Shown here: piece by piece, positions 6,986 to 57,971 of the stretch | How positions within the stretch are numbered: the first letter of the stretch is position 1 | Layout of the letters: the number at the start of each line of letters is the position of its first letter | Assembly (NCBI RefSeq): GCF_012027395.1 | Contig: NZ_SNUJ01000002.1 | Span: 186,001 to 250,000 of the forward strand | Reading direction: 5' to 3' | DNA from: Thermococcus sp. LS1 | GTDB lineage: Archaea > Methanobacteriota_B > Thermococci > Thermococcales > Thermococcaceae | Length of the DNA: 64,000 bases | Program-made: the position numbers and the translations under genes | Notes under the pieces: model-generated | The model's database searches: none | Told to the model about the DNA's origin: nothing | Seen by the model: the letters and a program-made list of their open reading frames with translations, nothing else

Positions 6986-7754
6986 TGTCTCCTTCTTTTG
7001 GCCATGAGAAGCCTATGATGTTCTCGATAAGCACAACCTCAGCCCTCAAAGTTTCGTCGGTGACACCCTCTATTACCAGCACTCCTTTGCGGGGGGTAAA
7101 TATCCTGTTTTCCGTTGCTCCCTCCGCCGGACCTATCAGAAGCACGACAAGGTGGCCTGGATTCCCTATCTTGCCGCGACCGATATCGATCTTAGTCCAG
7201 AAGTTCAGGTAAGTCTTTCTGTATCTCAGCCACGTCTGGTTGAAAGCGTACTGTTTGGCGGTTACGTTGTCGTAGCCCATTTCGAGGCCCTTAATGTAGT
7301 AGTTTGTTGTGAAGATGTTGGACACCACTCCGGATATCTCGGAGACTGTGAGTGTTCTGTATCTGCAGTCCCCGACATACAGCTGGGGGTTATCTTTACA
7401 GTTATCTACGGAGGGGTCGCCGATGACTATCGTGAAGTACTCATAAAAGCCTCTGATGGTTATATTCAGGTCAACTTCAGGGCTGCCTGTAATGTAGCTC
7501 TCCACGGTAATGTTGAATATCTTGGAGCCCGCTGGGGGGGCAGTTCCCTGCTCGATGAGCTTCTGGTACTGCTCAGCGGTGAGGGCGTAGAACTGAGCAG
7601 AGGGCGTGTATATTACAACGTATTGGGTGGATGCTTTGGGTGGCTTTGGGCTGATGACGTTGTTGAAGTTATGATACGAGTACATTACATAGCTGATTGG
7701 AGCAATGACTATAAGGAGAACTACAAGAACGACTGCGAGCCTCTTTTGATTCAA
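6975..7754 (-). CDS. membrane-anchored extracytoplasmic protein, unknown
   Basis: I do not recognise the family. The 259-residue product has one N-terminal hydrophobic helix (residues 5-26, LAVVLVVLLIVIAPISYVMY) and an otherwise soluble, beta-rich body. It contains several N-glycosylation sequons (NIT, NVT, NQT) and one close cysteine pair (CKDN...GDCR). It is therefore most likely anchored in the membrane facing the S-layer side. The start is a TTG at 7754 preceded by GGGGG at a spacing of 8. It lies 45 bp downstream of the S-layer gene on the same strand and may share its transcript, so a cell-envelope role is plausible but inferred. Confidence 0.65.
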   Translation of the reverse strand: MNQKRLAVVLVVLLIVIAPISYVMYSYHNFNNVISPKPPKASTQYVVIYTPSAQFYALTAEQYQKLIEQGTAPPAGSKIFNITVESYITGSPEVDLNITIRGFYEYFTIVIGDPSVDNCKDNPQLYVGDCRYRTLTVSEISGVVSNIFTTNYYIKGLEMGYDNVTAKQYAFNQTWLRYRKTYLNFWTKIDIGRGKIGNPGHLVVLLIGPAEGATENRIFTPRKGVLVIEGVTDETLRAEVVLIENIIGFSWPKEGDTTG

Positions 7755-7799
7755 GGCTAAAACCCCCAGAAGAGAGAATTAAAAGAGAAGGAAAGGCCT

Positions 7800-9611
7800 T
7801 CAGAGGCCAGCGAGGTACTCCATAAGGGCCTCAGCGGCAGCCTTGGTCTCGTCCCTGGTGGCGCCAGCGACGATGACGACGTCGTAGCCGCCAAGGGCAT
7901 CCTGGATGTACTCGATGTCGCCTGGGCTGTTGTACCAGTCAACCTGGCTGATGCCCTGATCGACGAGGTACTGGGTAACGCTGTTGGCAACCGGACCACC
8001 AACGAGGATGAGGTTGCTTCCTGGGTCGTCAAGGTTGACCTCATAGTCCATGACGGTTATCGGGCTGGTGACCGGCTTGACCATTACCTGGTCGGCGTAG
8101 ATGCCGGCAACGTAGTAGTCGGTGTCAAGGACGTTGTCGCCAACGCTGAGCTCAACCTCGCTGACAGTACCCTCCTTCTCGGTGAGGGCTATGTATGCGT
8201 AGGCAACGACGCGGTCAACGTCGTCGATGGTACCGTTTCCGTCGATGTCGTAGCCGACAGCAGCCTCATTGAGGGTCTTGAGCTCAAACCAGTACTTGAG
8301 GTCGTAGGTGCCGAAGATGTCAACTGGGTTGCCCTCGAGTGTGTCGAGGTTTGTGAGGGTTATGTTGGTTATGTAGGTACCGTCGGTCTTGATGGTCATC
8401 TCCCAGGTCTTGCCGTCGTAGGTGATGGTGCGACCGCTGGTGTAAGTGTCGACGTCAACCTGAGCCTCAATGGAGGCTATGAGGTGGCCGTCGATACCGA
8501 CGAAGGTGTCCCTGAGAGTGAGGATGACTGCGCCGTCTCCGAAGACGTCAACTGGGGTGTCCTTCTCAAGGATCATCTGGTCGCTCTCCTGGCCGGTGAC
8601 GGCGTTCTTAACGACGACAAGGGCCCTCTGGTCGATGATGCTTATGTCAAGGACGGTGACGATCCAGTCAGTGCCCTCGATGGCCTGCGGCTGGCCAACC
8701 TGGTACCAGGCCTGACCCTTATCGAGACCTGCGGTGAAGGTGTCGTTTCCGACGCTGAGGACGTAGTATGTCTCGCCGAAGACGGTGAAGGTTCCACCGG
8801 CAGCGACACCTGGGCTGTAAACACCAACCTGGGTTCCACCATCGGCGGCCATGTTCTCAGCGTCACCGATGTACCAGTCAGTAACAGTTGCAGTCTCAGC
8901 CGGGACGCCCCACTCTGGGTAAGCTGGCCTGACCTCAGTGGTGTATGAGACAGTGTAGTTGTAGAGGACGTAATCAACGAAGACGGTGACGTTGCCCGGA
9001 GTAACTATAAGGTCAGCGTCCTTGGGCGGCCTGCTCTGGTCCCAGGTACTCGGGTCCTTGGAGCTGAGCTGGACGTTCTTGAGAGTGATGTGCCAGTCGA
9101 TGAGCTGCTCGTCGCCGGTCTTGTCCTTGTCGGCGATGGTGGTAGTGACCATGAAGTTGCCCACCCAGTCAGTGTAAGTACCGTTGTAACCAACGCCATT
9201 GTACCAGTAGTCGCCCGGAAGCTCCTCGTACTTGGTTGCCCAGTTCTCGCTACCGTTGATGGTGAGGTTGTGGTCAACAGTCATGGTGTCAAAGTTGTAA
9301 GCGTAGATGGTCCACTCATCGAGGGTGGCGGGTGGGTACTCGGCCTTGATCTTCACGTAAGCGTTCTGGGCCTCGACTTGCTCGGTGGTGTAGAGCAGGC
9401 TTCCAAGGGCAACGGCTATGTCAGCGGCGCTGGCAACGTCCATGGCAGCAGCATTACTTCCAACAACGATTTTAACGTTCGGGGTTCCATCGGCGTTAAC
9501 AAAGAAGTCCTTCGGAATCTCCGGAACGGTCGGCTGGGCACTGGCAAAGCCGACGGTGGCTCCAACCATTGCGGCACCAATTGCAAGGGCCGCGATCTTC
9601 TTCACTTTCAT
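7800..9611 (-). CDS. S-layer protein
   Basis: This 603-residue protein is the surface-layer subunit of Thermococcales. Residues 1-25 are a signal peptide (MKVKKIAALAIGAAMVGATV, then cleavage after ASA). The mature protein is rich in Asp, Thr, Val and Tyr, beta-strand-like, with many NxT/S sequons. The N-terminal region (PNVKIVVGSNAAAMDVASAA) and the C-terminal region (DYEVNLDDPGSNLILVGGPV) match the S-layer N- and C-terminal domains known from Thermococcus, Pyrococcus and methanogens. The start has a strong AAGGAGGTG site at a spacing of 8. A strong promoter with a hairpin leader lies upstream. The product self-assembles into the outer lattice. Confidence 0.92.
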   Translation of the reverse strand: MKVKKIAALAIGAAMVGATVGFASAQPTVPEIPKDFFVNADGTPNVKIVVGSNAAAMDVASAADIAVALGSLLYTTEQVEAQNAYVKIKAEYPPATLDEWTIYAYNFDTMTVDHNLTINGSENWATKYEELPGDYWYNGVGYNGTYTDWVGNFMVTTTIADKDKTGDEQLIDWHITLKNVQLSSKDPSTWDQSRPPKDADLIVTPGNVTVFVDYVLYNYTVSYTTEVRPAYPEWGVPAETATVTDWYIGDAENMAADGGTQVGVYSPGVAAGGTFTVFGETYYVLSVGNDTFTAGLDKGQAWYQVGQPQAIEGTDWIVTVLDISIIDQRALVVVKNAVTGQESDQMILEKDTPVDVFGDGAVILTLRDTFVGIDGHLIASIEAQVDVDTYTSGRTITYDGKTWEMTIKTDGTYITNITLTNLDTLEGNPVDIFGTYDLKYWFELKTLNEAAVGYDIDGNGTIDDVDRVVAYAYIALTEKEGTVSEVELSVGDNVLDTDYYVAGIYADQVMVKPVTSPITVMDYEVNLDDPGSNLILVGGPVANSVTQYLVDQGISQVDWYNSPGDIEYIQDALGGYDVVIVAGATRDETKAAAEALMEYLAGL

Positions 9612-47781: not shown

Positions 47782-48993
47782 ATGATAATGCAAAAACTTA
47801 ATAGGGTGAGCAACTTGCGATGGAAGCCGCTGCTAGCAGTCCTGATAGGACTGCTTATGATTGGAGTGACGGCCAGAATTGGAATTGCTGGAGATTCCTA
47901 CCTCCAGCAGAGGGATACGCCAAAGGAAACCATCTCGTTAGGTATTATACATACTATTTCTCCGGAACAGGCTGAGAAGTTGCTCAAGGAAGGACAGCTT
48001 ATTTTAGTGGACTCCCATGGCCTTGAGGTGCTTAAAGATGCGAAACTTCTTCCATATATCATTAGATTTGGTAACGACACGGTATACGCAGTCAAGATTC
48101 TCCCTAGAGGAAGATTTTTTATATATGCTGCTCCAGAAGAATATGTCGCAAAGGACATAAAAAAGTTCAAAGAAGAGGCACTAGCGGAGTTCAGGAAGAC
48201 TTATTTTGTTGAATATACGGTTCCAATAGAAATTCCCGTTGACTATTCCTGGAGGACAATGGCAAATGGAAAAGTTATCTCAAATTTTTCAGCAGAATCC
48301 GTTTCCACTTCAACGGATGCATATCTTGAGAGCAAGATAACCTGGACATCTGGTGATGAGTGGTATCCACGTGGTAGGTTACAGTTAGTCTACCTGGTTT
48401 ACAAGTTGGCGGACATGAATCCTGACTACGACTGGCGTGTCGTTGACATGCAGACGTATGTTTATGCCGGCCGTTATCTTTGGGGTTCAAAGCAGAACTC
48501 AAACAGGGTTCAAAAAATACAGCCTAACTCAGCGGGCATACTACCAATACGCAATTGGGAGTTTGAGAAGATCACAATCCAAGTCGACACAAGACCTGAT
48601 GGGAATAGCGTCTTTTCGCTAGATTCATTTAAACCATCATATAATATTGATTATTATAACGAAGAACATTCTCAGACACTTCAGTATACCTTGGGCAATG
48701 GGGGAGCAAGTGTCACGATTACTAACATACTTAAAGCCGTCAAAATCACCGTTGATAATACCGGGGAGAATTGGGTTCGCTGGACTTACAAATTTAACAG
48801 AGATCTCGGAGTTGGGGATGAATGGGTCAATGTAGAGCCAGGATACATGTTTTCACTGAGAATTCCAAACAAACACGTCGAGGCTAGTCAGAAATTTACA
48901 ATAACCGTCAATTGGGTCGATAACATACCTCTCTCTCCAGACATTCATGCATCAAATACCCTAGTCTATTATTGGGACTGGAGCATAAATTAG
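47782..48993 (+). CDS. AT-rich secreted protein, unknown
   Basis: I do not recognise this 403-residue protein. Residues 15-36 form a signal peptide (KPLLAVLIGLLMIGVTARIG, cleavage near GIAG). The mature protein is acidic and beta-rich with many Tyr, Trp and Asn and few cysteines. It has a fragment resembling a dockable domain, SGDEWYPRGRLQLVYLVYKL, and ends in VNWVDNIPLSPDIHASNTLV. Codon use is AT-rich compared with neighbours. The start is ATG 47782 or, at leaderless spacing, 47788. Its position beside inverted repeats suggests recent acquisition. Confidence 0.65.
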   Translation: MIMQKLNRVSNLRWKPLLAVLIGLLMIGVTARIGIAGDSYLQQRDTPKETISLGIIHTISPEQAEKLLKEGQLILVDSHGLEVLKDAKLLPYIIRFGNDTVYAVKILPRGRFFIYAAPEEYVAKDIKKFKEEALAEFRKTYFVEYTVPIEIPVDYSWRTMANGKVISNFSAESVSTSTDAYLESKITWTSGDEWYPRGRLQLVYLVYKLADMNPDYDWRVVDMQTYVYAGRYLWGSKQNSNRVQKIQPNSAGILPIRNWEFEKITIQVDTRPDGNSVFSLDSFKPSYNIDYYNEEHSQTLQYTLGNGGASVTITNILKAVKITVDNTGENWVRWTYKFNRDLGVGDEWVNVEPGYMFSLRIPNKHVEASQKFTITVNWVDNIPLSPDIHASNTLVYYWDWSIN

Positions 48994-49127
48994 CATCCCT
49001 TTGGATTCATATTTTTGTTACAAGAGGATACTAGTGAATCGGTTGATTAGATGCATCCTATTTATCTTTTATCTTTATGATGCCAAAGCCTTATAACTCC
49101 ACTCCCAACTTCAATTAGGTGCGAGGC

Positions 49128-49628
49128 ATGCCCGGAACGATCAGCAAGATAGTTCACTTCCGCGATGAAGAGGAGTTCCTTGAGGACATGATGGAGATAG
49201 TGGAGAGGTTCACGTATCTGGCGAGCCGCTACGGCCACAACGTCATAGAGGGTATTCTTCTCTGGGACTACATAGGTATCCAGGACGAGGAGGGAGTTAA
49301 GATATTCCGTGTTGGCGAGTTTCCCTACTTCGAGGGCACGCTGAAGCTCGACCTCGAGACGCTCAGGATAATGGAGCGCTACTTCGATGAGATGGAGAGC
49401 AAGTGGGACGAGCTCCGCGTGGAGGACATCGCATACTTCGTGGAGATGCTGAACGAGGCTCTTGGGAGGGAGATAGTCTTCTATGAGGCCTACGACCTTG
49501 GTCTCGACAGGAACACGGCCTACATAATACTCAACCTCCTGAACCTACAGTACCTTGAGAGCGTCGTTGAAGGCACGGACAGGGAGATATTCGAGGAAGC
49601 TGTTCAAATGCTCATGAAGTATATTTGA
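49128..49628 (+). CDS. small acidic cytoplasmic protein, unknown
   Basis: I do not recognise this 166-residue acidic, helical protein. It lacks signal peptide, membrane helix and cysteines. Segments such as RVEDIAYFVEMLNEALGREI suggest an all-alpha fold. The ATG at 49128 has GGTGCGAGGC upstream; TATA-like CCTTATAACTCC lies about 35 bp before that. It is followed by two rightward genes. Confidence 0.7.
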   Translation: MPGTISKIVHFRDEEEFLEDMMEIVERFTYLASRYGHNVIEGILLWDYIGIQDEEGVKIFRVGEFPYFEGTLKLDLETLRIMERYFDEMESKWDELRVEDIAYFVEMLNEALGREIVFYEAYDLGLDRNTAYIILNLLNLQYLESVVEGTDREIFEEAVQMLMKYI

Positions 49629-49681
49629 TTCAATGATTACAGAATTATGTAATTATGCAATTGCAAAATGAGGTGGTGGCT

Positions 49682-49939
49682 GTGCTCTTCAAAAAGAGGG
49701 GCGTCTTCACTGAAGAGGATGCGAGAAAGGTCATAGAGATAGCGAGCAGTGAGAATGTCAAGGAGATAATAGTCATGGCCGAAAGCGTAACCGAGGAGGC
49801 CAAGAGGCGCCTCTGGGACTACGCGAGAGGAGTCCAGCTCATGGCCGACATGACAGGCGAAGATAGAAGCGTGCGTGTTGAGATACTCGAGGGCTATGTT
49901 AGCGAGCACGTGAAGGGAATCGACCTCGATGAGGTGTGA
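49682..49939 (+). CDS. small cytoplasmic protein, unknown
   Basis: An 85-residue acidic protein of unknown family. A GTG start at 49682 is chosen because GGTGGTGGCT lies directly upstream; the in-frame ATG at 49655 lacks a site. The content is one long helix region (EEDARKVIEIASSENVKEII). It lies 2 bp upstream of queE and is probably co-translated with it. Confidence 0.65.
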   Translation: MLFKKRGVFTEEDARKVIEIASSENVKEIIVMAESVTEEAKRRLWDYARGVQLMADMTGEDRSVRVEILEGYVSEHVKGIDLDEV

Positions 49940-49941
49940 GC

Positions 49942-50703
49942 ATGAAACTCATAATGGCCGAGGTGTTCAACAGCTGGCAGGGGGAAGGAGGGAGCGTTGA
50001 GGGTTCTGCCTTTGGACGGAGGCAGATATTCGTAAGATTCGCCGGCTGCGACCTTAACTGTATCTGGTGCGACTCGAAGGAGTTCATAGATGCCTCCAAG
50101 GTCTTGCGGTGGCGCTATGAGGTGGAACCTTTCACCGGAAAGTTCGAATACAAGCCTAACCCGGCGAGCTTGGATGAGGTAGTCGATGCCATTCTGAGGC
50201 TTGACACGGGGGATATACATTCCATAAGCTACACCGGCGGCGAGCCAACGCTTCAGGTCAGGCCGCTCAAGGCCCTCATGGAGAGGATGCACGAGCTCGG
50301 CTTTTCAAACTTCCTTGAGACCCACGGTAGTCTTCCAGAGCTGATTAAGGAAGTAGCTCATCTCACAGACTACGCCAGTGTCGACATAAAGGACGAGACC
50401 GCTAAAGCTACGGCCGACTGGAAAGCTCTCGTTCTCCGTGAGGTAGAGAGCATCAGAATCCTGAAGGAAGCCGGCGCAGAGACCTACGCCAAGCTCGTGG
50501 TGACAAAGGACACAAAGATAGAGAACGTCCGCTGGTATGCCTCCCTCCTGAAAGGCCTCGCACCACTTGTTATCCAGCCAAGGGAGCCGATCGAGATAAG
50601 CCAGGAGAGACTCATGGAACTCTACCACGAGACGGCAAAGATTATGGGCAAAAAGAACGTCGGTTTGAGCTTCCAGGTGCATAAGTACTTTGGGATATTA
50701 TAA
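49942..50703 (+). CDS. queE: 7-carboxy-7-deazaguanine synthase QueE-like radical SAM enzyme
   Basis: QueE makes 7-carboxy-7-deazaguanine, a precursor of archaeosine in tRNA. The 253-residue protein has the QueE start MAEVFNSWQGEGGSVEGSAF, the cluster motif CDLNCIWCD (CX3CX2C, near residues 36-43), and SYTGGEPTLQ (near 95). The ATG at 49942 has GAGGTGTGAGC upstream. Other archaeosine genes are not in the window. Confidence 0.92.
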   Translation: MKLIMAEVFNSWQGEGGSVEGSAFGRRQIFVRFAGCDLNCIWCDSKEFIDASKVLRWRYEVEPFTGKFEYKPNPASLDEVVDAILRLDTGDIHSISYTGGEPTLQVRPLKALMERMHELGFSNFLETHGSLPELIKEVAHLTDYASVDIKDETAKATADWKALVLREVESIRILKEAGAETYAKLVVTKDTKIENVRWYASLLKGLAPLVIQPREPIEISQERLMELYHETAKIMGKKNVGLSFQVHKYFGIL

Positions 50704-50751
50704 AAAAATTTATAAATCTCGAATTACATAATTCAAGGATTGGGAAGGGTC

Positions 50752-51963
50752 ATGACTTCAAATCATTGTCAAGAATGTGAAAACTGTGCATTCACAACAA
50801 GAGCATTAGTTTGGCTAGCTAGACAAAGTAATACTTTCCAGTACCTTATAAAAATTGCCATATATTTTATATTTTTCTGGGGTTTGGGAGTGTTACTGAT
50901 TATGATATTGCACCATAACACCACTTTTTCTGAAAAAATGCCCTATACACACGTTAATCCAATTTATTTTGGGTTTGTAGGGGCAATTTGGGAAGCTTTA
51001 AAAATTTTTGTATATAACAGTATTAGTATGCCTCCAACATTTATGCCAAAAACTAATAGTGTTCTGATTGTGTTAACATCGAAATCTATCCCAAGAAGCA
51101 AAAATATAATTGACTTATCACTATGTGATTACCCTGGGAGAAACGTTTTTATTCATGAGTTTAAAAACAAAGATAGTCCTGTGAAATCAGTAGAATGCTT
51201 GATGGAATTTATTAGGACATTTATCGAAACAAAATTAACAGTTAATTTAGCATATTACAAATTATATAATACTGCTTTTGCATTTATAATTGGTAGGATG
51301 ATGTATCTCAGAGGCTATGATCATAAAGTGTATCATAGATGGGGATGTATATTCTCTTCAAGATACAAAGATCAAGAGCATAAAAAGTCCCGCAAATTTG
51401 ATGAGATTGTGAGTGTCTTAAACAGATCTTTCTTGATAAGTCTCGAAGTTCTTAAAGCAAATAATGGTGAGATCAGTAGCGAAAAGATCCCAATAGGCAA
51501 ATTTTTGTCTATCCAAGATATTTTGCAGGAGATTATTGATTTTATTAATAACACGGGAGGATACTCTGAGAAAACAATGATACTTCTAGATTCGACTATG
51601 ACTGAGCTTTCAAGAGAGGCTCTTTGTAAGCTAATAGATAGTGATGTTATCGAAAAAGTGATTATACTGAGAGCCAAGGTGAAAGACTCAAGGTATAGGG
51701 ATAAATTGTATTCGCATGAGGTATCAGCAATAGCTATATTATTTGAGCAAGTGTTGGATGAGGTATACAGAACGTATTCCACAATGAGCACACCTGACTT
51801 CTCTATTAATATTGCATTTAAAACTCCCTCTGCAATAGCTCATTATATCGGATATAATGCATCACATGTAAATTACAAGGTTTTTATGTTCGATGTTGAT
51901 TCCGGAGAATACACAAATGTTTACAAAATTAAAGGTAACAACATAATCCCAGATGATATATAA
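50752..51963 (+). CDS. predicted two-helix membrane SAVED-domain protein
   Basis: SAVED domains are fused CARF-like pairs that sense cyclic oligonucleotides in CBASS and some CRISPR systems. This 403-residue protein has a cysteine-rich start (residues 6-12), a strong membrane helix at 31-53 and a weaker one at 69-88. Two CARF-like halves follow. The first has VLIVLTSKS (104-112) and YNTAFAFIIGRMMYLRGYDH (172-191). The second has KTMILLDSTMTE (274-285) and the typical SAVED end TPSAIAHYIGYNASHVNYKV (358-377), then FMFDVDSGEYTNVYKI. The gene is AT-rich and isolated, with no cyclase beside it. The ATG at 50752 follows GGGAAGGGTC. Function is inferred from pattern only. Confidence 0.6.
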   Translation: MTSNHCQECENCAFTTRALVWLARQSNTFQYLIKIAIYFIFFWGLGVLLIMILHHNTTFSEKMPYTHVNPIYFGFVGAIWEALKIFVYNSISMPPTFMPKTNSVLIVLTSKSIPRSKNIIDLSLCDYPGRNVFIHEFKNKDSPVKSVECLMEFIRTFIETKLTVNLAYYKLYNTAFAFIIGRMMYLRGYDHKVYHRWGCIFSSRYKDQEHKKSRKFDEIVSVLNRSFLISLEVLKANNGEISSEKIPIGKFLSIQDILQEIIDFINNTGGYSEKTMILLDSTMTELSREALCKLIDSDVIEKVIILRAKVKDSRYRDKLYSHEVSAIAILFEQVLDEVYRTYSTMSTPDFSINIAFKTPSAIAHYIGYNASHVNYKVFMFDVDSGEYTNVYKIKGNNIIPDDI

Positions 51964-52075
51964 CAATAATAAAAACGTTAGAGGCGATGATGACATTGGC
52001 CTTTGGGGTTAGTGATGCCCGGGATCGACGGCCTGAGCCAAAAACTTTTAACCTTTAACTTCCTCCCAATTTCTG

Positions 52076-55446: not shown

Positions 55447-56451
55447 TTATCTTCTCTTCTCCCCCATTGTCTCTATGAGCCTTCTGCACAGCTTGATGTG
55501 GAACATGAACTCGTGGTAGTTTCTGTTCTGCTCCGGGAAGATTACCTTCAGCTCGTTGAGCCCCCGCTTGCCGCCAAATTCCCCGAAGATTGTAACCCCG
55601 TTTACCTCGACGACGCCAAAAACAGCGGCGAGGTTGAAGATGAGCGTCCTCAGCTGGTAGGCTGAAACTTCGTGCCTCCCGAGCTCTGCCGTTGGATATT
55701 CGAAGAGGAAGTACTCCAGCCCTTCTATCTTGGCCACATCCGTTATCGCTATGTCCGCCGTCAGGAAGACGAGGAGGGTCGGTGTCATCTCGTCGTAGCG
55801 CTTGAGGGACTTGATAATGATCTCGTCGTTGTTGTGGGCGAGCTCATTGACGCTTTCTGCTATGATTATCCTGTCTTTCAGCCTCTCAAACTCTTTTAGG
55901 GCAATGTATGCAGCCTTTCGAGACTTCTTGACGCGCCGGTTGCTGAACTCTTTGAGCAGGTGGGCGTTCTTGACTGCTTTCCTCATCTCGCTCAGCTGAC
56001 CGTGGCGGTATTTGTAGTTCATTGAGTTCTCTATCTCCTTTTGCACCCCCTCTGCGACGACTATCTGGTAGCCGTCGAGCGGCCGGAAGCCCGAGATAAA
56101 GCGGTGGTAGAAGAGATTAGTGTCGGGAGCGAAGGCAACCCCTTTGCGGAGGTACTTGTAAAGCTCGAGGCTCTTCATGAACTCGTTTATGTTGTCGTAG
56201 CGCAGGATTCCAGCCGAGATGAATGCCTCGTAGAAGTCGCTGTATGTCGGCAGTTCGTAGGATAGGTGTTCTGGAACGGCCTCGTTGAACTCATGGCGGT
56301 CAACTAAAACGTCCAGTTTGTAGCCTTTCTCGCTTGGTTCTGCCCTGAATAGGGGAAGTTCGTAGAGGGGGTAGCTTACCACTATCTCTGGCAAGATATT
56401 GATGAGCACCTGAAGCTCGGGCTTCTCGATTATTTCATAGCTCGACGACAT
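55447..56451 (-). CDS. PIN-domain ribonuclease with N-terminal extension
   Basis: The 334-residue protein has about 100 N-terminal residues of unknown fold, then a PIN domain. The acidic site is complete: Asp110 in APDTNLFYH, Glu139 in EGVQKEIEN, Asp209 in NNDEIIIKS and Asp233/Asp238 in TADIAITDVA. PIN domains cut RNA with metal. The ATG at 56451 follows GGTGATGGG and lies 17 bp inside the CARF gene, so the two are co-translated. The C-terminal 80 residues (VSAYQLRTLIFNLAAVFGVV) are extra. The CARF partner suggests ligand control. Confidence 0.8.
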   Translation of the reverse strand: MSSSYEIIEKPELQVLINILPEIVVSYPLYELPLFRAEPSEKGYKLDVLVDRHEFNEAVPEHLSYELPTYSDFYEAFISAGILRYDNINEFMKSLELYKYLRKGVAFAPDTNLFYHRFISGFRPLDGYQIVVAEGVQKEIENSMNYKYRHGQLSEMRKAVKNAHLLKEFSNRRVKKSRKAAYIALKEFERLKDRIIIAESVNELAHNNDEIIIKSLKRYDEMTPTLLVFLTADIAITDVAKIEGLEYFLFEYPTAELGRHEVSAYQLRTLIFNLAAVFGVVEVNGVTIFGEFGGKRGLNELKVIFPEQNRNYHEFMFHIKLCRRLIETMGEKRR

Positions 56452-56929
56452 TCCCATCACCGAGGAAGTTCTTGAGGCGCTGCATATGCTTCGGGATCAT
56501 CATATAGGGCCTGTCCGGAAAATCCATGTCCAGCAGGGCCATGTAGATTATCCTGTCGACCGGAAAATCCCTTATCTGAACCACTGCTGCCGTTGCGAGG
56601 GCCTTCCTTCCCGAGGTTATGTCGAGCCCGATAGTGTATCCCTCTTCTTCAAGCCTCTGGAAGAGCTCCTTGAACTTCTTATCTGCCTCGAGAAAGCTGT
56701 TGTTGGGTATCACGACGGTCTCTATCTCAGGGTTGAAGTTGTAGGCCTGCGAGATAACCTTTATGGCCTCCACAACTTTGGGCAGCTTTTTCCGGTAGAC
56801 TTCCTCCGTAAAGATGAAGACCTTTCTTGGCTTCCTGTTCCTTGAAACAACGGCATAGTAGGTGTTTACGAGCGCCCATTCCGAGCGACCGAGCAAAGTT
56901 ACGTAGGCTATCTTTCTCGGATTTATCAT
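56435..56929 (-). CDS. stand-alone CARF-domain protein
   Basis: The 164-residue protein is a single CARF-like Rossmann domain. The first strand and ligand motif read IAYVTLLGRSEWALVNTYYA (residues 7-26), like the ATLGRSPE motif of CRISPR Csx1/Csm6 proteins. The second motif is DITSGRKALATAAVVQIRD (103-121), like DITGGTKP. CARF domains bind cyclic oligoadenylates. No effector is fused, but a PIN nuclease gene follows with 17-bp overlap. The ATG at 56929 overlaps the membrane-gene stop (ATGA) and has GGGGG 8 nt upstream; an ATG at 56944 is the alternative. Confidence 0.75.
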   Translation of the reverse strand: MINPRKIAYVTLLGRSEWALVNTYYAVVSRNRKPRKVFIFTEEVYRKKLPKVVEAIKVISQAYNFNPEIETVVIPNNSFLEADKKFKELFQRLEEEGYTIGLDITSGRKALATAAVVQIRDFPVDRIIYMALLDMDFPDRPYMMIPKHMQRLKNFLGDGNVVEL

Positions 56930-57378
56930 GCAAAATTCCCCCATGCGAAGGCGATTACTCCGTAGACGAACGCCATCAGAAATGGTCTAAGGGTTATCTT
57001 CCCCTCAACGGCTTTATGGGCAAGAGTGAATGGCACAAGCGGGAGGATGAAATACTCCACGCCGTAGGTTTCTATCCCGAGGCCTCCGAGGATAAAGAGA
57101 ATGAGCAGAGCTTCGAAAACACCCGCTGGGAGTGTCAGTACTGTAAGGAGAACTAAATCCGCAGTTTTATCTTTCTCTTTTATGCCCGGGATCGCGACAA
57201 TCCAGAGGAGGAAAACCAGAACGAGGAAGTGGAGCAGGAGTTCCTCGAATGTGACATCTATCAGCGGCTCGCCCTTGGCGGGCAGGTAGTAGAACCAGGC
57301 CGCTCCAAAGGAATAAACAAGGGACATCAGGATAGACACTCCCCACTTCATTCGAGGGAAGCCTTTCTCATTCTCCAT
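56926..57378 (-). CDS. four-helix membrane protein, unknown, coupled to CARF
   Basis: I do not recognise this 150-residue protein. It has four clear membrane helices (near 12-30, 48-66, 75-97 and 103-149 in two parts). Short charged loops separate them (GIKEKDKTAD, HKAVEGKI). The ATG at 57378 follows GGTGGAAGC. Its stop overlaps the CARF start by 4 bp, so the membrane, CARF and PIN genes form one coupled unit. It could be a sensor or membrane effector of that unit. Confidence 0.7.
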   Translation of the reverse strand: MENEKGFPRMKWGVSILMSLVYSFGAAWFYYLPAKGEPLIDVTFEELLLHFLVLVFLLWIVAIPGIKEKDKTADLVLLTVLTLPAGVFEALLILFILGGLGIETYGVEYFILPLVPFTLAHKAVEGKITLRPFLMAFVYGVIAFAWGNFA

Positions 57379-57387
57379 GCTTCCACC

Positions 57388-57849
57388 TCATTCAACTAAC
57401 AGCATCCCGTACAAAACGCTTTCGGAGAAGTCTATCTCCACCAGCCTGCTGATCTCTATGCCGATAGCATCTACCGACGGTCTCACTTTCGTTGGCATCC
57501 TGCAGGGCTCTCCCCTCTCAAAGGGGCAGTCGTCACAGAGGTTGCAGCTGCCGGGGAAGAGTGCCATCGCGTACATCTTGCCCTCCCTGAAGAGCTCCTC
57601 TTCGCGCTTGAGAAGGTGCAGGATGGCCTTTCTCTTCTCGGCTTCAAAATCGTCCATGTCAATTTCAAACTTTATGATGAGAGCCTTTCTGAAGTGGCTC
57701 ACCCACTCCCTGGCTTCCCTCCAGTCCGGGACATGCGGGGGACAGCTCGGCCTCTTCCCGTACATGGGACAGGTCATGCACTTCCAGACGGGTCTTGGTG
57801 AAACAACTATCTCACCCGCGTTAATTTCTCTCTCCCAGAGCACCCTCAT
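57388..57849 (-). CDS. DUF2284 cysteine-rich metal-binding protein
   Basis: This 153-residue protein matches DUF2284 (COG5423), predicted metal-binding proteins. It has ten cysteines in two groups: CMTCPMYGKRPSCPPH (near 24-39) and CNLCDDCPFERGEPC (near 101-115). The pattern suggests Fe-S clusters or zinc and a redox role. The ATG is at 57849. It is 9 bp upstream of the membrane-CARF-PIN unit and may share its transcript, though its family is common outside such contexts. Confidence 0.8.
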   Translation of the reverse strand: MRVLWEREINAGEIVVSPRPVWKCMTCPMYGKRPSCPPHVPDWREAREWVSHFRKALIIKFEIDMDDFEAEKRKAILHLLKREEELFREGKMYAMALFPGSCNLCDDCPFERGEPCRMPTKVRPSVDAIGIEISRLVEIDFSESVLYGMLLVE

Positions 57850-57971
57850 AGAGCATCGAATGTGATACTCTTGGGAGACTTAAAACCTTAGCCGTAAGGT
57901 GGTGGACTGCTGTTGTCATTAACAAATCTTTGGGCCAAAACATTTTTACGTTTGAAAACCTATTCACTGAC

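What the first reader, a model, noticed from the sequence alone, without database searches (positions are those of the whole stretch)
55447..57378. A coupled membrane - CARF - PIN three-gene unit outside any CRISPR locus
Seen: three leftward genes overlap by 4 and 17 bp. They encode a four-helix membrane protein, a single CARF-like domain (LLGRSEW and DITSGRKA motifs) and a PIN nuclease with a full set of acidic residues. Known: CARF domains bind cyclic oligoadenylates and switch on RNases in type III CRISPR systems. Inference: the CARF protein may sense a nucleotide signal and control the separate PIN nuclease, with the membrane protein as sensor or second effector. It may belong to a host stress or defence pathway rather than to CRISPR. 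I know of no description of this trio.
Basis: partly seen in the sequence, partly recalled or inferred. Interest (0 to 1): 0.85.

Follow-up and report, generated by a model that had tools for sequence, protein, structure and literature searches.

The report
Split CARF–PIN RNase switch outside CRISPR
Heat-loving archaea inherit, beside the same neighbouring gene, a two-gene sensor-plus-RNase pair built like a CRISPR effector cut in two, and the host of this stretch lacks the CRISPR enzyme that normally makes the sensor's signal, so the pair probably answers to some other signal that is still unknown.

Summary
Three overlapping leftward genes encode a membrane protein, a CARF protein and a PIN nuclease. 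The CARF protein matches a catalogued family (PADLOC CARF_m1, E 6e-79); all 50 listed structure matches of its model are CARF proteins. The PIN model matches the PIN half of SiRe_0806, a CARF-PIN protein solved with cA4; the CARF model matches its other half. The pair is a one-chain CARF-PIN effector encoded as two genes.

The pair is in 65 of 74 good family genomes, adjacent in 79 of 79 genomes with both genes, and its PIN tree follows the genera. The gene just upstream is a seven-cysteine DUF2284 protein (77 of 80). The membrane gene is in 24 of 94 and decayed in one more. The window's genome has no Cas10 or mCpol hit and no SMODS hit above cut-off; 40 of 65 good pair-bearing genomes lack Cas10. 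Fused CARF-PIN paralogues sit within 20 kb of Cas10 in 16 of 18 genomes and lie on the other side of a fully supported branch.

Likely mechanism (inferred): a CARF dimer binds a non-CRISPR nucleotide or RNA signal and switches the partner PIN RNase. New variant of a known kind; ligand unknown.

The parts
57388..57849 (-). DUF2284 predicted metal-binding protein, 153 aa, seven invariant cysteines; first gene of the run
   Evidence: Pfam PF10050 E 1.7e-34; upstream of CARF on the same strand in 77 of 80 family genomes that have the CARF gene; cysteines invariant in 18 aligned sequences
56926..57378 (-). Small hydrophobic membrane protein, 150 aa; lineage-restricted gene between DUF2284 and CARF
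   Evidence: ORF; four hydrophobic segments; in 24 of 94 family genomes, one genus only; no family over a cut-off (best Pfam hit Bax1-I 11.5 bits against 34.1; none)
56435..56929 (-). Stand-alone CARF protein, 164 aa from ATG 56929 (frame open to an upstream ATG at 56944)
   Evidence: PADLOC PDLC01971 CARF_m1 E 6e-79; AlphaFold2 pLDDT 88.2, pTM 0.85; the 50 listed Foldseek rows are CARF proteins; VIA-align Z 15.9, rmsd 2.5, 141 aligned, to SiRe_0806
55447..56451 (-). PIN-domain nuclease, 334 aa from ATG 56451 (frame open to GTG 56460)
   Evidence: Pfam PIN_4 E 2.4e-5, over cut-off; PADLOC CARF_m1 CARF_PIN E 3.2e-16; AlphaFold2 pLDDT 88.7, pTM 0.88; VIA-align Z 15.9, rmsd 4.0, 243 aligned, to SiRe_0806 residues 150-418
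57879..57885 (-). Possible TATA box (TTTTAAG on the minus strand) 30-36 bases upstream of the DUF2284 start
   Evidence: Read by eye; TATA-like T-rich words can be seen upstream in several of the 17 loci printed there; not tested statistically

Best explanation
The unit is a split, CRISPR-independent version of the CARF-PIN effector. The CARF protein forms a dimer that binds a nucleotide or RNA-end signal in the usual CARF pocket; it assembles with the PIN protein made from the next, overlapping gene, and ligand binding switches the PIN's metal-dependent RNase on (or off). The pair is a vertically inherited part of the chromosome of this archaeal family, probably made as one transcript with DUF2284, a cysteine-rich, perhaps iron-sulphur protein that may report redox or metal stress. 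Shown by sequence and models: the CARF and PIN folds, the intact acidic set, the match of the two proteins to the two halves of one solved CARF-PIN protein, the inheritance pattern, and presence without Cas10. Inferred: dimer and complex formation, the direction of control, RNA as substrate, the ligand, one transcript, a host stress role, and the part played by DUF2284.
For: CARF model: the 50 listed Foldseek rows are CARF proteins; Z 15.9 to SiRe_0806 residues 1-143, tied with Cdn1 and Card1. PIN model: the five best Foldseek rows are SiRe_0806 (best E 2.6e-7); Z 15.9 over 243 residues, model 1-328 on chain 150-418, next other protein 9.9. A fused PADLOC profile aligns with both proteins, CARF on 3-146 and PIN on 219-442 of 465. 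Pair adjacent, same strand, in 79 of 79 family genomes where both genes are found; in 65 of 74 good genomes. PIN tree of 26 family sequences: each of the four genera with two or more rows is one clade. No Cas10 hit in the own genome or in 40 of 65 good genomes with the pair. Fused paralogues lie within 20 kb of Cas10 in 16 of 18 genomes; split pairs do in 1 of the 14 genomes where both are on one contig. Same pair in Archaeoglobus, Methanomicrobiales and an Asgard MAG. No match in the viral contigs (CARF patterns), plasmids (CARF) or phages (PIN).
Against: No ligand, complex or RNase activity was tested. Motif I differs from that of the Cas10-linked relatives: GR[S/T]xW replaces GTS or GTT, so the ligand may not be a cOA. 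DUF2284 is in 74 of 74 good genomes, including all nine that lack the pair, and was not found in the nine loci outside the family, so its functional link is weak. The pair is dispensable: absent from genus g12 and G019, and the PIN gene is broken by an insert in G100. One split pair (G014) does lie 15 kb from Cas10. One distant locus has McrBC genes upstream, which leans towards defence rather than housekeeping.
Confidence: 0.62

Rival explanations
1. It is an ordinary type III CRISPR effector in two pieces, driven by cOA from Cas10 and simply encoded away from the CRISPR locus.
For: Motif II (DIT-x-GRK) is shared with the Cas10-linked fused paralogues and with the ring nuclease Sso2081. 25 of 65 good genomes with the pair do carry Cas10. 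In G014 the pair is 15 kb from Cas10.
Against: The own genome and 40 of 65 good pair-bearing genomes have no Cas10 palm hit. Cas10 is not enriched with the pair (25 of 65 with, 6 of 9 without; Fisher p 0.15, odds ratio 0.31). Split (32) and fused (11) CARF domains lie on opposite sides of a 100/100 branch. Of 29 Cas10 genomes with a split pair, 14 have both on one contig and 1 of those is within 20 kb.
Confidence: 0.15
2. The CARF protein is a stand-alone ring nuclease or ligand-clearing enzyme, and the PIN protein acts independently of it.
For: The best sequence-profile match among solved structures is the ring nuclease Sso2081, E 3.9e-6. Ser11, Gly104 and Lys106 of Sso2081 align with conserved residues here.
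Against: The NCBIfam Crn1 model scores 18.1 against a cut-off of 125. Crn1 has been placed in CARF7 and CARF_m13, not CARF_m1 (PMC12409355 passage). Thr10 of Sso2081 is Arg here. The PIN protein's best structural match is to a protein in which the PIN is fused to a CARF.
Confidence: 0.1
3. A toxin-antitoxin pair, with PIN as toxin and CARF as neutralising partner.
For: Overlapping genes; PIN fold like VapC (one search lists VapC and FitAB entries at Z 7.0 to 7.8).
Against: Single copy in the own genome, tree that follows the genera, no plasmid or phage match; CARF is a sensor fold and precedes the nuclease as in the fused protein. Absence of both in G019, and an intact CARF beside a broken PIN in G100, do not decide.
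Confidence: 0.08
4. A constitutive RNA-processing enzyme in which CARF is only a dimerisation or substrate-binding subunit (for example for broken tRNA), not a switch.
For: Widespread in the family and non-mobile. A CARF outside CRISPR, that of RtcR, binds tRNA halves ending in cyclic phosphate (PMC7790460, summary and passages read).
Against: Absence from a whole genus and the broken PIN gene in G100 argue against an essential processing step. CARF domains of known function mostly act as switches (recalled).
Confidence: 0.15

Closest known systems
SiRe_0806 (Sulfolobus islandicus CARF-PIN protein; PDB 9jxw, and 9jxx with cA4)
   Same: CARF model matches residues 1-143 and PIN model residues 150-418, each at Z 15.9
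   Different: One chain there, two genes here; identity in the aligned parts only 15-21 per cent; no SiRe_0806 paper was found, so I know it only from the PDB titles
CARF_m1 CARF-PIN fusions of PADLOC (PDLC01973, PDLC01068)
   Same: Same CARF sub-family; the three fused proteins tested (L126, L130, L134) match PDLC01973 at E 3.2e-198 or better; motif II DIT-x-GRK shared
   Different: Fused; within 20 kb of Cas10 in 16 of 18 genomes; patchy; motif I GTS or GTT instead of GR[S/T]xW; other side of a 100/100 branch
CARF_m1 stand-alone CARF (PADLOC PDLC01971)
   Same: The window's CARF is a member, E 6e-79
   Different: The catalogue entry as shown gives no partner or function; the PIN partner, DUF2284 neighbour and inheritance are from this work. 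The 2020 classification paper (gkaa635) is not held and may describe them
RtcR CARF (RNA repair operon regulator)
   Same: A CARF that works outside CRISPR and answers to broken tRNA (PMC7790460, summary and passages)
   Different: RtcR is a transcription activator with AAA+ and HTH domains, not an RNase partner
Crn1/Sso2081 ring nuclease
   Same: Stand-alone CARF of similar size; several ligand-site residues align
   Different: Fails the Crn1 model cut-off; Thr10 replaced by Arg

Membership tests
CARF superfamily, sub-family CARF_m1 | Match to the sub-family's own profile | tested here: met
   PDLC01971, E 6e-79, residues 12-165 of 169 on 2-155 of 156
CARF superfamily, sub-family CARF_m1 | Rossmann-like CARF fold | tested here: met
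   Model pLDDT 88.2; the 50 listed Foldseek rows are CARF proteins; Z 15.9, rmsd 2.5, 141 aligned
CARF superfamily, sub-family CARF_m1 | Glycine/lysine ligand motif after the fifth strand (T-x-G-R-K) | tested here: met
   T105, G107, R108, K109 invariant in 27 sequences from several archaeal groups
CARF superfamily, sub-family CARF_m1 | Binding of a nucleotide ligand | not testable with these tools
   Needs protein
PIN-domain nucleases | PIN fold | tested here: met
   PIN_4 25.1 bits vs cut-off 21.9; the VIA rows after SiRe_0806 are PIN domains or PIN-containing proteins by title or recall
PIN-domain nucleases | Acidic catalytic set | tested here: met
   D110, E139, D209, D233, D238 invariant in 24 sequences (A5; numbering from the ATG at 56451); which of them bind metal is recalled, not computed
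PIN-domain nucleases | Nuclease activity | not testable with these tools
   Needs protein
Type III CRISPR CARF-PIN effector | CARF and PIN in one chain | tested here: not met
   Two overlapping genes in the window; separate adjacent genes in 79 of 79 family genomes with both
Type III CRISPR CARF-PIN effector | Encoded with a type III locus (Cas10) | tested here: not met
   No Cas10 palm hit in the own genome; in relatives 1 of 14 measurable split pairs within 20 kb of Cas10, 15 more on other contigs
Crn1 ring nuclease | NCBIfam equivalog cut-off | tested here: not met
   18.1 bits vs 125
Crn1 ring nuclease | Helical insert carrying Tyr133 | tested here: inconclusive
   Model has no helix of four or more residues after 120, but residues 131-164 are its weakest part
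VapBC-type toxin-antitoxin | DNA-binding antitoxin as partner (recalled definition) | tested here: not met
   The partner is a lone CARF domain without a DNA-binding domain in family scans or model

The most novel reading that the evidence does not exclude
An endogenous archaeal signalling pathway, independent of CRISPR, in which a so far unknown synthase or an RNA-damage product provides a nucleotide signal that a CARF subunit reads to control a PIN RNase in trans. DUF2284, a cysteine-rich, perhaps iron-sulphur protein, couples it to redox or metal state, and a HAD phosphatase (beside the pair in Archaeoglobus and Methanomicrobiales) ends the signal. Type III CRISPR's CARF-PIN effectors and this pair would be two branches of one older sensor-nuclease module.
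Probability: 0.3. Interest if true: 0.85.

Novelty: new variant of a known kind. Interest (0 to 1): 0.6.

Why it matters
CARF domains are known mainly as readers of signals made by type III CRISPR. Here a CARF with its second ligand motif intact has stayed paired with a nuclease across most of an archaeal family, and in 40 of 65 good genomes without Cas10, while its Cas10-linked fused cousins are patchy. If it works as proposed, there is a nucleotide or RNA-end signal in these archaea that is not made by CRISPR, and the pair gives a direct handle for finding it: two small proteins from a hyperthermophile, in a group for which genetic tools exist (recalled).

Tried and rejected
Membrane protein as a core part: rejected, 24 of 94 genomes, decayed in G096, no match in the nine loci outside the family. 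DUF2284 as a necessary part: not accepted, because it is in all 74 good family genomes even without the pair and was not found in the distant loci. TIP49 as a partner: it faces the PIN gene tail to tail, and lies far away in the one g11 and one g13 genome checked. Other signal makers: mCpol no hit in the own genome; SMODS in the own genome only a 20.8-bit hit below the 26.5 cut-off in a 485-aa frame, probably the CCA-adding enzyme (inference), and 1 of 94 family genomes over the cut-off, at 26.7 bits. Other synthase families were not searched. Mobile origin: no match in viral contigs, plasmids (CARF only) or phages (PIN only). Sequence match of the PIN protein to solved structures: none for the single protein or the profile, so the SiRe_0806 link rests on fold and on the PADLOC fused profile; the CARF profile reaches SiRe_0806 only at E 0.063. 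TAL-effector rows were set aside as repeat artefacts. DUF2284 literature: two papers listed, one passage read, a selenoprotein table row. PMC12669027 (passages) names PIN-family RNases among cOA effectors but says nothing on this pair in the passages seen.

Caveats. I think g12, which lacks the pair, is Pyrococcus, but no call names it. The genome-contig scan used two short peptide patterns, so its 32 loci are a lower bound. The trees used part of what I had: 26 of the family CARF and PIN genes, 6 of 7 distant CARFs (3 distant PINs), and 11 of 18 fused paralogues (12 were fetched; L129, whose frame is only 346 aa, was left out). They are unrooted. E. coli rings in the Cas10 and SMODS control genomes, so those searches lean towards false positives. 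CARF as the kind of each structure row was judged from titles and recall.

Full report
WHAT IS THERE. On the minus strand the window holds, in order of transcription, DUF2284 (57849-57388), a 150-aa membrane protein (57378-56926), a CARF protein (56929-56435) and a PIN nuclease (56451-55447). A TIP49-family ATPase gene on the plus strand ends 4 bp short of the end of the PIN gene.

CARF IDENTITY. Pfam has no match and NCBIfam none over its cut-off. PADLOC puts the protein in CARF_m1, a stand-alone CARF family, at E 6e-79. The AlphaFold2 model from 27 sequences (pLDDT 88.2, pTM 0.85) gives 51 Foldseek matches at E 0.001 or better; the 50 listed are all CARF proteins. It reaches Z 15.9 against SiRe_0806, Cdn1 and Card1.

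PIN IDENTITY. Pfam PIN_4 scores over its cut-off. D110, E139, D209, D233 and D238 (from ATG 56451) are invariant in 24 sequences from Thermococcaceae, Archaeoglobus, Methanomicrobiales and an Asgard MAG. The model (pLDDT 88.7, pTM 0.88) matches SiRe_0806 over nearly its whole length, residues 1-328 on chain residues 150-418, Z 15.9 at rmsd 4.0; the next other protein, an ordinary PIN domain, is at 9.9. SiRe_0806 was solved with cA4 (PDB titles); no paper on it was found. So the two window proteins correspond to the two halves of one known protein type. Independently, PADLOC's fused CARF-PIN profile aligns with both: CARF on positions 3-146, PIN on 219-442 of 465.

DISTRIBUTION. Of 94 genomes of the family, 80 have the split CARF and 80 the PIN; 79 have both, adjacent and on one strand in all 79 (the odd two, G016 and G105, are cut by contig ends). 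Among 74 good genomes, 65 have the pair; the nine without are the eight good genomes of genus g12 and G019. In G019 DUF2284 and TIP49 lie 82 bases apart with nothing between them, as if the pair had dropped out. DUF2284 is upstream of CARF on the same strand in 77 of 80 genomes (distance between aligned parts -20 to 170 bases without the membrane gene, n = 54; 440 to 469 with it, n = 23); in two of the other three the contig breaks there, and in one, G083, the pair lies in another neighbourhood. The membrane gene is in 24 of 94, one genus only; G096 keeps a decayed piece of it. In a PIN tree of 26 family sequences each of the four genera with two or more rows is one clade, which fits vertical inheritance.

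OUTSIDE THE FAMILY. A pattern scan of the 84,980-species collection gave 32 loci: 23 in Thermococcus, Thermococcaceae or Thermococci records and nine in Methanoculleus, Methanofollis, other Methanomicrobiales, Archaeoglobus and Helarchaeota. In seven of these nine the CARF gene is directly upstream of PIN; in the other two, both Archaeoglobus, the PIN frame is shortened and no CARF was found. None of the nine showed DUF2284 or the membrane gene. A HAD_2-type hydrolase follows the PIN gene directly or after one gene in six of the nine, and lies about 6.5 kb away in a seventh; L164 shows none, and L169 ends inside the PIN gene.

RELATION TO CRISPR. The own genome has no Cas10 palm hit, and 40 of the 65 good genomes with the pair have none. 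Cas10 is in 25 of 65 with the pair and 6 of 9 without (Fisher p 0.15). Fused CARF-PIN paralogues occur in 18 genomes, all 18 with Cas10 and 16 with it within 20 kb; of the other two, one is 947 kb away and one is on another contig. Of 29 genomes with both Cas10 and the split CARF, 14 have both on one contig, and in 1 of these (G014) they are within 20 kb (15.3 kb); in 15 the contigs differ and the distance is unknown. Eleven fused and 32 split CARF domains separate on one branch with 100/100 support (unrooted). Motif II is shared (DIT-x-GRK in most fused rows), but motif I is GTS or GTT in the fused and GR[S/T]xW in the split proteins. In Sso2081, Thr10, Ser11 and Gly104 hold phosphate and Lys106 matters for cA4 (PMC10018336 passages); these align with Arg15, Ser16, Gly107 and Lys109 here.

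MECHANISM. Best reading: a CARF dimer binds a nucleotide-like ligand and works the PIN RNase in a two-protein complex. The folds, the intact acidic set, the fused relative and the adjacency are shown; the complex, the control and the ligand are inferred. Because the own genome has no Cas10 or mCpol hit and no SMODS hit above cut-off, its signal is probably not made by one of these synthases; other synthase families were not searched. RtcR shows that CARF domains outside CRISPR can read broken tRNA (PMC7790460, summary and passages). The 2014 CARF survey already saw stress response as a theme of CARF proteins and counted two CARF families associated with PIN (PMC4012209, section 7 and passages). 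DUF2284 has seven invariant cysteines, C24, C27, C36, C102, C105, C108 and C116, which suggests iron-sulphur binding (inference), so a redox or metal link is possible but unproved.

NOVELTY. CARF-PIN effectors and the CARF_m1 family are known. What appears new is the two-gene, vertically kept, Cas10-independent form and its neighbours. The paper searches behind that statement were made, in an open-access library that lacks the 2020 CARF classification; that paper may describe this family.

Noticed in passing
L163 3909-7495 (Archaeoglobus MAG): An AAA_5 (McrB-like) gene and an McrC gene (PF10117 E 2.4e-62) run straight into the CARF-PIN-HAD genes with overlapping ends, hinting at a defence island.
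   Followed up: partly
L168 4597-6602 and L167 623-2714 (Archaeoglobus): PIN copies without a CARF found beside them, shortened at the N end, followed by a protein with no Pfam match (L168 5297-5944) and a HAD hydrolase.
   Followed up: partly
L104 about 7570-8510 (genome G100): The PIN gene is interrupted by an insert whose reading frame looks like a transposase (by eye), while CARF and DUF2284 stay open.
   Followed up: partly
L098, L099, L100, L113 upstream of DUF2284: A HAD-like hydrolase, 27-35 per cent identical in parts to the HAD beside the distant pairs, lies just upstream of DUF2284 in g11 and g15.
   Followed up: partly
L119-L124 (genus g12): In the genus lacking the pair, DUF2284 is followed by a different small protein gene that looks membrane-bound (by eye) and sits in another neighbourhood.
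   Followed up: no
window 48001-52000: GC content falls to 0.40-0.46, against about 0.50-0.54 in the stretches on either side, possibly an acquired segment.
   Followed up: no
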